IMG/VR virus record: IMGVR_UViG_3300020477_000038
Coordinates: 1 to 46,101 of that record
DNA length: 46,101 bases
Direction: 5' to 3' (one strand)
Origin: a virus
Below the pieces are notes generated by a model. That model searched no databases and had not been told where the DNA came from. It worked only from the letters and a program-made list of their open reading frames with translations. Below are positions 8,506 through 11,844 of the stretch, piece after piece. Made by a program: the position numbers and the translations under genes. Numbering within the stretch: position 1 is the stretch's first letter; every line of letters starts with the position of its first letter.

Positions 8506-8700
8506 TTATTTATCAGATTGGCACATAACTGCTTTCCCAAATATCATTTTAAAATGCGTGCAACAGACATAAGCTGTGTAGTTGTGCCTAAATATATCTG
8601 GATCATCATGCAGAATTTCTTCACCGACTTTATGCGTAGCTGGTGAGCCGCATAGGCTGCAATTTTCTCCTTCACATGATTTTGAAATGAAGTGGTTCAT
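8506..8700 (-). CDS. small cysteine-rich protein
   Basis: 64 residues with CEGENCSLCG and a later YVCCTHF, a spacing that could form a zinc-binding treble-clef or ribbon. The start overlaps the stop of the antirepressor gene (ATGA), so the two are co-translated. Function unknown. Confidence 0.65.
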   Translation of the reverse strand: MNHFISKSCEGENCSLCGSPATHKVGEEILHDDPDIFRHNYTAYVCCTHFKMIFGKAVMCQSDK

Positions 8701-9404
8701 GCGGCATTCTCCTGAAAGTATTTCTTGTGGAAATGAAGTTGTCCTTTCGCTGTAATAAGCGTTTTAAACCATACCTGCCGTTCGCCAGCTTGGTCGGTGC
8801 GAACACCCTCTTGAAGCTTTAATAAGCCTTGATCAACATATTTCTGATAAGGCTTGTTTCGGTCCTTAAGGCTGCTCATCAAGTAACCTTCATCGCGTAG
8901 CAGCTCATACAACTTGTTCTGGCCAGTGCCTACCGACTTGGCAAAGTCGCGAAATGAAACTGAATTGATTGCCTCGTTAACTGAATCGGCAAAAGCAATC
9001 TTTGGCTTGGCGGCCTCTAACTTGTCAGCCATATCAGCAGCAAGGCGTAATGCCTCCGCGAATGACTGAGGGACTGTTGCTTGTACTTGGTAACTGCCAG
9101 TCTTGCGAATAGACGGAAGAACTTCTGATACTACCCATTCTTCAAACGCTTCAGCCTCTGGCATTTTTGAGCGCATGATTAAGCGGTAAACATCACGCTC
9201 TGGAACTAAAAGCATTAGCTGATCACCGCTACTGGTAGGGATATAACGTTTCGTTACCCCCTTGCAGTGATCGCTTATTGCTTTACTGACATTTGAATAG
9301 CCAAGAATTGTTGCTACATCCTTTGCAACAAACATAGGTTCATCGCTCAACTGAACTGTGCGGATCTCGTTTTTTTGGAACTTGAAAGGAATTACATTGT
9401 TCAT
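8697..9404 (-). CDS. Bro-N / KilA-C type phage antirepressor
   Basis: 235 residues. Residues ~1-110 form a Bro-N domain (FVAKDVATILGYSNVSKAISDHC...EAFEEWVVSEVLPSIRKTGSYQ); residues ~125-230 form an ANT/KilA-C domain (FADSVNEAINSVSFRDFAKSVGTGQNKLYELLRDEGYLM). Such two-domain proteins act as antirepressors that disable a CI-type repressor by protein contact. It is the first gene after the leftward promoter, whose two operators match those at the repressor and cro starts, so it is probably silenced in the lysogen. Confidence 0.85.
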   Translation of the reverse strand: MNNVIPFKFQKNEIRTVQLSDEPMFVAKDVATILGYSNVSKAISDHCKGVTKRYIPTSSGDQLMLLVPERDVYRLIMRSKMPEAEAFEEWVVSEVLPSIRKTGSYQVQATVPQSFAEALRLAADMADKLEAAKPKIAFADSVNEAINSVSFRDFAKSVGTGQNKLYELLRDEGYLMSSLKDRNKPYQKYVDQGLLKLQEGVRTDQAGERQVWFKTLITAKGQLHFHKKYFQENAA

Positions 9405-9419
9405 GTTTTAGCTCTTCAT

Positions 9420-9478
9420 GTAAATCATATGCTTTACATAATAGTCGCTAAATTACTCTTGTCAAGTATATGCTTTAC
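9420..9478. promoter_or_regulatory. OL-like operators, two copies
   Basis: GTAAATCATATGCTTTAC (9420-9437) and GTCAAGTATATGCTTTAC (9461-9478) share 15 of 18 bases. The same imperfect palindrome recurs at 11562-11579 and, inverted, at 11616-11633. They bracket the pL promoter, so a bound repressor would block it. The ligand is inferred to be the HTH repressor at 11133 and possibly the Cro-like protein. Confidence 0.75.
9438..9465 (-). promoter_or_regulatory. leftward early promoter (pL-like)
   Basis: On the minus strand a perfect TTGACA -35 box (9465-9460) is followed after 16 bp by TATTAT (9443-9438). It reads into the antirepressor gene. One operator covers the -35 side (9461-9478), another the start-site side (9420-9437). 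This is the only sigma-70-like promoter of this quality seen before the leftward operon. Confidence 0.8.
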
Positions 9479-9487
9479 TTTTTAGTT

Positions 9488-9530: not shown

Positions 9531-10400
9531 TTATGCAGCTATAAGAAGCCTCTTGGCTGCTTTCTCAGGAGAGGAGGTTGCTATTAAAACAATTTCTTTT
9601 TTATCAGCTTCCTCTTCATAAAGACTTAAGTAGTCTTGAGCATCTTTATATTGCTTGTCAGTGTAGCTAACTTCATCAAATTCAGGCATGAAAACTATCA
9701 ATTCCTTTTGGGTTAGATCGAAAGAATAATCCCTAACAACGGAAAGATCCCATAGCAACTTCTTGGCCTCGTTCCATGAAGCGTTAACTCTTGCAGGATT
9801 CATCGCGGCAAGATTTGCAACATAGTGATTGGAAACATAGTGGTAGCTATGTATTTTACCTATTTTAAAATTGAAGTTCTTTTTGAGATTATTATCATGC
9901 TCTAGAACTTTTCCTTTAACCTTCTTAATCCATCTTGTACTTAACGGACTGGATTTGTCTTTAGATACAGAGTATTCATCTTCTGCATCCTCTTCAATAA
10001 AGTTTAAAGAGGCTAGAGAGGCATGGTTTTGAATTGCGCTTTTTAAAAGATCCTTTAGTCCTGATGAATGCATCGTTTCAATCTCAGTGACAAAAGAATT
10101 TTGATATGGAGGTTTATAGTCAAAAAGACTTCCCTCAGAGCTCAACCATGCAGTTAAATCATCTGAGATAACACTTATTAATCCTTGAACGCTTTGAGAC
10201 TGCCCCCCATACATACATAAGAGAGTTTCTTTACTTATAGTTTGCACAACTCTAAATTCACCGGAGTTCATTTTAGCAGCTGCTATAACAGTTATTCGTT
10301 CTCCTGAAAGAATTATTGGCTCCAACTGAACGGATAGGTAGCTACCTTGACTCTCTGGTAAAGGAGGAAACTTTGTTTTTAATACGTCTAGGTTAACCAT
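9531..10400 (-). CDS. partner protein of HipA-like kinase, unknown function
   Basis: 289 residues; no family recognised with confidence. The N-terminal ~110 residues look like a compact alpha/beta domain (GSYLSVQLEPIILSGERITVIAAAKMNSGEF...), a layout that recalls partners encoded beside HipA-like kinases, such as DUF3037, without clear motif identity. The middle is charged, and the C-terminus ends with IVLIATSSPEKAAKRLLIAA. It overlaps the kinase gene by eight bases and shares its transcript. The A+T-rich composition of this operon contrasts with the flanking genes and suggests separate acquisition. A partner or substrate role is inference. Confidence 0.7.
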   Translation of the reverse strand: MVNLDVLKTKFPPLPESQGSYLSVQLEPIILSGERITVIAAAKMNSGEFRVVQTISKETLLCMYGGQSQSVQGLISVISDDLTAWLSSEGSLFDYKPPYQNSFVTEIETMHSSGLKDLLKSAIQNHASLASLNFIEEDAEDEYSVSKDKSSPLSTRWIKKVKGKVLEHDNNLKKNFNFKIGKIHSYHYVSNHYVANLAAMNPARVNASWNEAKKLLWDLSVVRDYSFDLTQKELIVFMPEFDEVSYTDKQYKDAQDYLSLYEEEADKKEIVLIATSSPEKAAKRLLIAA

Positions 10401-11130
10401 TGTAAACTAGCCCCATTTGTTTCATTCCCAATTGTTGCTCTATTAGTAGAGATAAAACAGAAAGTCGCTGCTCGAAGAATTTCAGCATTTCATCTTCATA
10501 AGTATCACTAATGATATTAGCGGATTTTAGTTCACTTGTAATCTGATTAACAAAGTCTAATCGAAAATTTGGTATAGGCTTTTCTAAGTCCTTAAGCAGC
10601 CTTCTTTTTCCCAACTCATCATCCTTGTTTAAAGCAGCAGTAAGCGTATTAATAATTCCGTTATCATAAGAAGGTATATTAAAATCTCCACACAGACACT
10701 TTTCATGATCTATTAAGTATATCTGCCCAGACCCTTTGATGAGTATGTTTTGTTGATTCCTATCAGGATTCTTTATCCATTCATCAAAGCATGCTGCTTC
10801 ATTTTTTTTCTTCCACTTATCCCAAACAATATTTACAAAAGTCTTATTGGTAACTAAAAGCGCAAAAATAGAAGGACTCTTTAAATCTTTACTCGCAAAA
10901 ACATATTCATCATTCCAAATTCCAATAATAGGATTTGGTGAATTTAATCCAACTTCGTTTGCTAACCTAGCAACCACGTACTCGATTACAATTTTTTCTG
11001 ATGTGAGTCTTTTTATGTATGCCCGTTCTATGGTTTCTGCAACTTGTATATTGCCCAAATAAACCTGGTTAGATGTATCAAGCTCAAGCTTTTTTGGATT
11101 CCCTGAAACCGTCCCTAGTTCAATTCCCAT
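10393..11130 (-). CDS. HipA-like kinase-fold protein
   Basis: 245 residues. A predicted ATP-lysine lies at Lys40 (ERAYIKRL). The catalytic loop reads NPDRNQQNILI (Asp123, Asn128), and Asp141 of the metal motif lies in YLIDHEKC. This order matches small HipA-like kinases rather than full HipA, which has ~440 residues and an N-subdomain 1. HipA proteins phosphorylate translation factors or tRNA synthetases; the target here is unknown. It sits directly after the phage repressor gene in the same operon, a place lambdoid phages use for lysogen-expressed exclusion genes such as rexAB. Confidence 0.8.
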   Translation of the reverse strand: MGIELGTVSGNPKKLELDTSNQVYLGNIQVAETIERAYIKRLTSEKIVIEYVVARLANEVGLNSPNPIIGIWNDEYVFASKDLKSPSIFALLVTNKTFVNIVWDKWKKKNEAACFDEWIKNPDRNQQNILIKGSGQIYLIDHEKCLCGDFNIPSYDNGIINTLTAALNKDDELGKRRLLKDLEKPIPNFRLDFVNQITSELKSANIISDTYEDEMLKFFEQRLSVLSLLIEQQLGMKQMGLVYNG

Positions 11131-11132
11131 TT

Positions 11133-11561
11133 TTATTTAACCTTAGATCGATCTATCACACTTTGAATTGTTGACATGAATATGTTTTTTTCATCCTCTG
11201 AAAGCTCTATACCAGAATCTACTAACTTCATAAACATATGAAGAACGGCTTTAGATCGGGGGGTTGCTTTCTCTAAAGCTTCAACCGCATAAGGTATTAC
11301 ATTTTCTTTTGCAGAAGACTGACCAGTGAGCTCACCCGTCAAAACAGATAAAAAATCTGGTTCTTCAACGCCGTAAAAAACCGCGGCTTTAGCTAAGTTT
11401 GTATTTGTGATCCTTCCAGTTCGAAACCAGTTTGTTACGGCCTGCCTGGTGACATCACAAAAATCGGCGAGAGCAACTTTCGTCTTGCTCCTGTCAGAGG
11501 ATTTATGAACATCCGTTAGCCAGCTTATAACTAGCTCTTTGTGTCTATCTTCTAGTTCCAT
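11133..11561 (-). CDS. short HTH phage repressor without peptidase domain
   Basis: About 142 residues (MELEDRHKELVISWL...). A helix-turn-helix spans roughly residues 30-60 (KVALADFCDVTRQAVTNWFRTGR); the rest is a helical tail for dimerisation. No LexA/S24 self-cleavage domain is present, so SOS-driven cleavage is unlikely and the antirepressor may be the inducing agent. Divergently placed from the Cro-like gene, it occupies the cI position. An in-frame ATG at 11588 would add nine residues and place an operator inside the gene. Neither ATG has a clear ribosome site, so a leaderless message as for lambda cI is possible. Confidence 0.8.
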   Translation of the reverse strand: MELEDRHKELVISWLTDVHKSSDRSKTKVALADFCDVTRQAVTNWFRTGRITNTNLAKAAVFYGVEEPDFLSVLTGELTGQSSAKENVIPYAVEALEKATPRSKAVLHMFMKLVDSGIELSEDEKNIFMSTIQSVIDRSKVK

Positions 11562-11633
11562 GTAAATATAATGCTTTACAAAATTCATTTCTTAAAGCAA
11601 TCTACAGTTGACAAAGTAAAGCAAGTGATTTAC
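11562..11633. promoter_or_regulatory. OR-like operators, two copies
   Basis: GTAAATATAATGCTTTAC (11562-11579) and GTAAAGCAAGTGATTTAC (11616-11633) match the OL copies; the second reads GTAAATCACTTGCTTTAC on the other strand. The first touches the repressor start and the second lies between the -35 and -10 boxes of pR. Centres are 54 bp apart. This gives a lambda-like two-sided switch. Confidence 0.8.
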
Positions 11634-11636: not shown

Positions 11637-11667
11637 TCTTCGTGGTTTCATTCAAAAGGTGCAAGAA

Positions 11668-11844
11668 GTGAAAAATTCTCAAATTGCCAAACACTTTGAT
11701 GTATCGAGGCAAGCTGTTTATGGATGGTTCAAAAAAAAGGTTCCAGCCGAAAGAGTGATAGAGCTCGAAAGGATAAGCGGTATTCCACGCCATGAGCTTC
11801 GACCTGACATTTACCCGCCCGAAGAATACAAACAAGCCAGCTAA
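11668..11844 (+). CDS. Cro/YdaS-like DNA-binding protein
   Basis: 58 residues with an N-terminal helix-turn-helix (NSQIAKHFDVSRQAVYGWFKKK) and a typical YdaS/Cro ending (VPAERVIELERISG...ELRPDIYPPEEY). As first gene after pR it should bind the same operators as the repressor and favour lytic growth. The GTG at 11668 is chosen because AAAAGG lies eight bases before it; a GTG nine bases earlier is too close to that site. Confidence 0.85.
   Translation: MKNSQIAKHFDVSRQAVYGWFKKKVPAERVIELERISGIPRHELRPDIYPPEEYKQAS

What the first reader, a model, noticed from the sequence alone, without database searches (positions are those of the whole stretch)
9531..11588. HTH repressor, HipA-like kinase and unknown partner form one operon in the phage immunity slot
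Seen: three overlapping or adjacent minus-strand genes from the divergent cI/cro region to a clean terminator, A+T-rich compared with neighbours. The middle protein shows kinase residues (Lys40, Asp123, Asn128, Asp141). Known: HipA kinases are usually paired with an HTH HipB, and lambda places rexAB exactly behind cI. Inference: the phage repressor doubles as the HipB-like partner, or the kinase and partner are a lysogen-expressed anti-phage or toxin module.
Basis: partly seen in the sequence, partly recalled or inferred. Interest (0 to 1): 0.78.

Follow-up and report, generated by a model that had tools for sequence, protein, structure and literature searches.

The report
Lysogen-expressed kinase toxin–antitoxin pair
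A dormant marine virus carries, behind the gene that keeps it asleep, a kinase and partner protein of the recently described HipAD anti-virus toxin–antitoxin type; the sleep-keeping protein itself ends in a short tail that in viral genomes I found only next to such kinases, which suggests it may be a third part of the machine.

Summary
A P24-like temperate phage (integrase, RecE/T) has one minus-strand unit: CI-like HTH repressor (11133-11588), 245-aa kinase (10393-11130), 289-aa partner (9531-10400), terminator. The kinase is a HipA_2-type kinase with all catalytic residues (AF2 pLDDT 94.5; PDB match CtkA). The 'unknown' partner is a divergent DUF3037 protein (profile-profile E 5e-7; reversed control 0.57). 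Kinase and partner are neighbours in 76 of 80 viral loci, three of the four others being cut by contig ends. They belong to the HipAD/DS-6/PDC-M66 kind, for which publications report anti-phage defence and toxicity when the DUF3037 gene is deleted. The most likely function is a lysogen-expressed toxin–antitoxin defence module.

HipB-style pairing is not general: plasmid copies lack an HTH gene and the repressors are diverse. But this repressor ends in a ~45-residue tail shared by HipAD-linked repressors whose kinases are only ~22% identical. Tail scans of IMG/VR that ignored the kinase returned 21 loci, all followed by the kinase. Two phages swapped the HTH/operator region but kept tail, kinase and partner. 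Against exclusivity: three chromosomal HTH proteins carry a similar tail without a kinase. Verdict: new variant of a known kind.

The parts
11133..11588 (-). CI-like HTH repressor P0003 (151 aa; start possibly M10 at 11561)
   Evidence: HTH_3 E 0.003, phrog_4 repressor E 0.003; four palindromic operators at the two promoter regions
11136..11279 (-). C-terminal tail of the repressor (aa 104-151), shared with HipAD-linked repressors
   Evidence: tail HMM 57.8 bits in the window; all 29 strong tail ORFs in held loci lie directly upstream of the kinase; kinase-blind scans 21 of 21
10393..11130 (-). HipA_2-type Ser/Thr kinase P0002 (245 aa), presumed toxin/effector
   Evidence: PF20613 32.7 bits, cut-off 27; AF2 pLDDT 94.5, pTM 0.91; Foldseek CtkA E 2e-7; PADLOC PDC-M66A E 4e-6
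9531..10400 (-). DUF3037-type partner P0001 (289 aa), presumed antitoxin/regulator
   Evidence: phrog_21150 E 7e-47; profile-profile with DUF3037 proteins E 5e-7, prob 92%; AF2 pLDDT 91.5, two domains
9990..10400 (-). partner N-domain (aa 1-137), divergent DUF3037
   Evidence: N-domain alone against DUF3037 profile E 3e-6, prob 88%; unrelated or reversed controls E >= 0.27
9534..9953 (-). partner C-domain (aa 150-289), most likely the part resembling XPF/ERCC1/FAAP24 nuclease-fold domains
   Evidence: Foldseek prob 1.00 but E only 5e-3; assignment to this domain is from the order of strands and helices, the output does not give the aligned residues
9488..9516 (-). Rho-independent terminator closing the unit
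   Evidence: hairpin -12.6 kcal/mol, z -3.6, followed by a U-run
11562..11579 (.). repressor operator O1, at the repressor start
   Evidence: match to GTAAAGCATATGATTTAC with up to 3 mismatches; 0.09 expected by chance in the window
11616..11633 (.). repressor operator O2, in the rightward (cro) promoter region
9420..9437 (.). operator O3, just downstream of the antirepressor promoter -10
   Evidence: 0 mismatches on the minus strand; promoter TTGACA-16-TATTAT at 9465-9438
9461..9478 (.). operator O4, overlapping the antirepressor promoter -35
11659..11844 (+). divergent YdaS/Cro-like regulator
   Evidence: PF15943 E 4e-13
8697..9404 (-). Bro-N/KilAC antirepressor, next unit downstream
   Evidence: PF03374 E 4e-27, PF02498 E 4e-24

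Best explanation
This is a divergent HipAD-type (HipA_2 kinase + DUF3037-type protein; PDC-M66/DS-6 kind) toxin-antitoxin defence module carried by a P24-like temperate phage and transcribed with its CI-like repressor, so it is made in the lysogen. Shown: gene order, kinase fold and active site, tight pairing with a DUF3037-type partner, recurrent placement behind phage repressors, and repeated operator-like palindromes at the cro and antirepressor promoters. Inferred from the layout: one transcript, made in the lysogen. Inferred from published relatives: the kinase is a growth-stopping toxin held in check by the partner, and another infecting phage releases it so that the infection aborts. 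Inferred with less confidence: the repressor's cassette-linked tail touches the kinase-partner complex or otherwise couples it to the lysogenic state.
For: HipA_2 above cut-off and confident kinase fold. Partner directly downstream in 76 of 80 viral loci (one of them fused), with three of the other four cut by contig ends, and in 63 of 73 bacterial loci plus one fusion and two contig ends, the other exceptions being remote kinases. Conversely 15 of 16 DUF3037 genes in Pseudomonadota genomes have a kinase of this profile just upstream. Partner-DUF3037 homology by profile comparison with controls. Weak direct PDC-M66A/B hits. Published: retron-Sda1 HipA deletion abolishes defence against Bas51 and DUF3037 deletion is toxic (PMC12548924); DS-6/HipAD catalytic mutant loses defence (PMC13092281). 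Position: 32 of 49 non-redundant genes upstream of the kinase match phage repressor family phrog_4.
Against: No experiment on these proteins. P0001 itself hits neither DUF3037 nor PDC-M66B directly; the C-domain is only weakly matched (E 0.05). Identity to the validated systems could not be measured because their sequences were not at hand and the HipAD paper is not held. The pairing statistics start from a query set already made of such kinases. Co-transcription is read from the layout only.
Confidence: 0.75

Rival explanations
1. Three-component version (an extension of the best explanation): the repressor is a genuine HipB-like third component. Its tail docks on the kinase-partner complex, so repressor level or occupancy gates the toxin and ties defence to lysogeny.
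For: Kinase-blind tail scans: 21 of 21 IMG/VR loci followed by the kinase, 6 of them new; the only phage-database hit, D14P cI, is followed by kinase and partner; 46 tail loci span 21 kinase clusters below 60% identity, median 22%; L011/L012 swapped HTH and operators but kept tail+kinase+partner; called repressor and kinase ORFs often overlap by 8-52 bp.
Against: Three chromosomal HTH proteins carry a tail-like end without a kinase. Only 16 of 58 kinase clusters have the tail. Tail and kinase distances do not correlate significantly (r 0.12, p 0.09). The tail queries came from kinase-linked loci.
Confidence: 0.4
2. The tail is only a dimerisation or antirepressor-docking end of short CI repressors, linked to the pair by shared ancestry and recombination; the repressor's only link to the module is transcription.
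For: Short repressors without a peptidase domain plausibly need some oligomerisation element; kinase-free chromosomal tails exist; a KilAC/Bro antirepressor lies downstream here with its own operators.
Against: An antirepressor-like gene is seen in only 12 of 46 tail loci, within the limited flanks held; specificity for kinase-linked loci in viral contigs.
Confidence: 0.45
3. Lysogenic-conversion or stability function: the kinase modulates host physiology or enforces retention of the element rather than blocking phages.
For: The pair and a VbhA-family gene are the only annotated genes of a 3.5-kb enterobacterial plasmid, as in addiction modules; other HipA kinases cause persistence (PMC8262856 abstract).
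Against: Validated relatives give phage protection.
Confidence: 0.2

Closest known systems
HipAD / DS-6 (PMC13092281; named in Brenes & Laub 2025, not held)
   Same: Two genes: HipA-like kinase plus a protein with DUF3037 and a second C-terminal domain; from E. coli prophages, judging by the title of the naming paper
   Different: Here the partner is so divergent that it misses the DUF3037 Pfam model; the pair is in a repressor operon and the repressor carries a shared tail
PDC-M66 (PADLOC) / HipA+DUF3037 of retron-Sda1 (PMC12548924)
   Same: Same architecture; there the kinase is needed for defence and DUF3037 deletion is toxic
   Different: No retron gene among the neighbours inspected here; the PDC-M66A hit is weak and PDC-M66B does not hit P0001
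HipBA and HipBST
   Same: HipA-family kinase beside a DNA-binding HTH protein
   Different: Kinase is the short HipA_2 type without Couple_hipA/HipA_C Pfam matches; partner is not HipS or HipB; in HipBST the order is HTH, antitoxin, kinase (general knowledge), here HTH, kinase, partner
Lambda cI-rexA-rexB
   Same: Exclusion-type genes expressed with the repressor in the lysogen (general knowledge)
   Different: Unrelated proteins

Membership tests
HipAD / PDC-M66 | HipA_2-type kinase with intact active site | tested here: met
   PF20613 32.7 bits, cut-off 27; invariant residues; fold
HipAD / PDC-M66 | adjacent DUF3037-domain partner | tested here: met
   not by Pfam hmmscan, but by profile-profile, E 5e-7 whole and 3e-6 for the N-domain, with negative controls; bridging members L065, L069 hit DUF3037
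HipAD / PDC-M66 | C-terminal DUF1829-like, DNA-binding domain in the partner | tested here: inconclusive
   collinear but weak (E 0.05); XPF/ERCC1/FAAP24-like fold, E 5e-3; no DUF1829 hit
HipAD / PDC-M66 | match to PADLOC PDC-M66A and PDC-M66B models | tested here: inconclusive
   A: E 4e-6, 24 bits; B: no hit for P0001, 0.005 for relative L065
HipAD / PDC-M66 | kinase toxic without partner and required for phage defence | not testable with these tools
   needs experiments; published for relatives only
HipBA / HipBST | HipA_C and Couple_hipA / HipS domains | tested here: not met
   no such Pfam hit in P0001-P0003
HipBA / HipBST | HTH antitoxin obligatorily paired with the kinase | tested here: not met
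   pairs without HTH on plasmids; several non-HTH upstream genes in phages
phage CI-type repressor operon | HTH gene divergent from a cro-like gene with shared operator-like palindromes | tested here: met
   four palindromic sites, 0.09 matches expected; YdaS/Cro-like gene; binding itself not tested

The most novel reading that the evidence does not exclude
Temperate phages have built their immunity repressor into a HipAD toxin-antitoxin system. The HTH half sets immunity and is swapped between phages; the tail half belongs to the kinase cassette and makes the repressor a lysogeny sensor, so that loss or titration of repressor, or an incoming phage acting on it, arms the kinase.
Probability: 0.35. 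Interest if true: 0.78.

Novelty: new variant of a known kind. Interest (0 to 1): 0.6.

Why it matters
It identifies the unknown partner and the system type, adds a large phage-borne branch of HipAD-like modules, and shows that these recurrently sit in the lambda-rex-like slot. If the repressor tail is functional, it would physically join lysogeny control to a defence toxin, which can be tested directly in laboratory strains.

Tried and rejected
Direct scans with P0001 or P0002 alone in IMG/VR found nothing, and the partner alignment was not conserved enough for a scan; the kinase alignment worked. Sequence search of the PDB gave no convincing relative. An alignment meant to fold the natural kinase-partner fusion (L059) was rejected because the kinase rows aligned to the partner half. 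The fusion is one genome only (L133 is 100% identical to L059), so an assembly error cannot be excluded. A Mantel test of tail-kinase co-evolution was inconclusive. Antirepressor docking as the sole reason for the tail was disfavoured, with limited flanks. E. coli relatives of L065 and L083 were not found by megablast. The main HipAD paper and the Payne preprint are not held.

Full report
What is there. The window is a whole IMG/VR virus record of a temperate phage: integrase, RecE/RecT, O-like and DnaC-like replication genes, terminase and portal. Its terminase is 79% identical to that of Alteromonas phage P24. The finding covers one minus-strand unit, HTH repressor, kinase, partner, closed by a terminator hairpin. 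The junctions are a 2-bp gap and an 8-bp overlap. The block is richer in A+T than its neighbours.

The kinase. P0002 passes the HipA_2 cut-off. In 46 diverse homologues the F-D-E, N-x-D-R, N and I-D motifs are invariant and the presumed ATP lysine K40 is at least 90% conserved. The AlphaFold2 model is confident (pLDDT 94.5, pTM 0.91) and its best PDB match is CtkA, followed by PI3/PI4 kinases.

The partner. P0001 has no Pfam or NCBIfam hit. It is confidently modelled as two domains joined by a low-confidence linker at 138-148 (pLDDT 91.5, pTM 0.57). A profile of 50 relatives aligns collinearly with DUF3037 proteins, E 5e-7, prob 92%. The N-domain alone gives 3e-6 and the C-domain alone only 0.05; a reversed profile and the kinase profile give E of 0.27 or worse. 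Intermediate partners in L065 and L069 hit DUF3037 itself. Foldseek links the partner to XPF/ERCC1/FANCM-FAAP24 nuclease-fold domains with probability 1.00 but a modest E of 5e-3. By its strand and helix order this is most likely the C-domain; that it binds DNA is inference.

The pair. Five relatives found by protein search carry both genes in the same order: Alteromonas phage P24, Acinetobacter phage qsb1, a Marinobacter plasmid with phage genes, a Rahnella plasmid and a Cupriavidus plasmid; a 3.5-kb E. coli plasmid has a kinase with a remote partner. A scan for the kinase motif in IMG/VR gave 80 loci: 76 have the partner directly downstream (one as a fused gene), and three of the other four end at the contig edge. 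In bacterial genomes 63 of 73 have it, plus one fusion and two contig ends; the remaining seven are remote kinases, mostly from Acidobacteria assemblies. Looking from the other side, 15 of 16 DUF3037 genes in Pseudomonadota genomes have a kinase that the profile recognises just upstream.

What is published. PADLOC lists such pairs as PDC-M66. In retron-Sda1 the HipA gene is needed for defence against Bas51 and deleting the DUF3037 gene is toxic (PMC12548924). DS-6/HipAD, kinase plus DUF3037/DUF1829 protein, needs its kinase residue for defence and is predicted to form a kinase-partner-DNA complex (PMC13092281). The naming paper (Brenes and Laub 2025, reference) is about E. coli prophages by its title, but is not held, so whether it already notes the repressor slot is unknown to me.

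The slot. In 49 non-redundant viral loci the gene upstream of the kinase matches the phage repressor family phrog_4 in 32 cases and HTH_3 in 27; 7 have a peptidase S24 domain; others are Rz, NlpC/JAB, Arc, CsrA or nuclease genes. In the window the same palindrome occurs at four places, two at the repressor/cro region and two around the promoter of the next gene, a KilAC antirepressor (0.09 matches expected). The likely reading is that the repressor silences cro and the antirepressor while kinase and partner are made with the repressor in the lysogen.

The tail. The last 45 or so residues of the window repressor match a tail, predicted helical by eye ([AS]SPRSxxxLxxIxxAAxxGrLTexDxxLLxxIAxR), of other short repressors in front of such kinases, although their HTH halves differ. 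In held loci all 29 strong tail ORFs lie directly upstream of the kinase. Five kinase-blind scans of IMG/VR returned 21 loci, all with the kinase next, six of them new; the only phage-database hit, D14P, also has kinase and partner. Phages L011 and L012 are 87% identical from just before the tail through the partner, but their HTH and operator regions are unrelated, with homology returning beyond. So the tail travels with the kinase cassette and the HTH with the immunity region.

Limits of the tail argument. Three chromosomal HTH proteins carry similar tails with no kinase within about 8 kb, only 16 of 58 kinase clusters have the tail, the queries came from linked loci, and a distance-correlation test was not significant. 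Tail-bearing L198 has a kinase but no recognisable partner. I therefore treat a direct role of the tail as open, about 0.4.

Verdict. Observation confirmed; interpretation partly supported. It is a divergent HipAD-type toxin-antitoxin defence module in the repressor operon of a temperate phage, with a possible third component.

Noticed in passing
L006:4980-5381, L007:4818-5378, L008:4818-5378: Pseudomonas megaplasmids encode only the partner's N-domain, without a kinase; a candidate decoy antitoxin or anti-HipAD protein.
   Followed up: no
L198:3592-4461: Tail-bearing repressor and intact-looking kinase but no recognisable partner gene behind it (possible remnant); would be informative about whether the repressor can hold the kinase alone.
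   Followed up: partly
L133/L059:5902-7656: Kinase and partner fused in one 584-aa frame in Plasticicumulans acidivorans; the two loci are the same genome, so an assembly error is possible.
   Followed up: partly
L010:148-1835: A 3.5-kb E. coli plasmid whose only annotated genes are this kind of pair and a VbhA-family antitoxin gene.
   Followed up: no
window 9405-9480: The KilAC antirepressor has its own promoter with two operator-like sites of the repressor, so the repressor appears to control its own antagonist.
   Followed up: partly
L061, L062, L065, L082, L083: A second favoured location of the pair is the lysis/tail region (Rz-, NlpC- or JAB-type genes upstream).
   Followed up: partly
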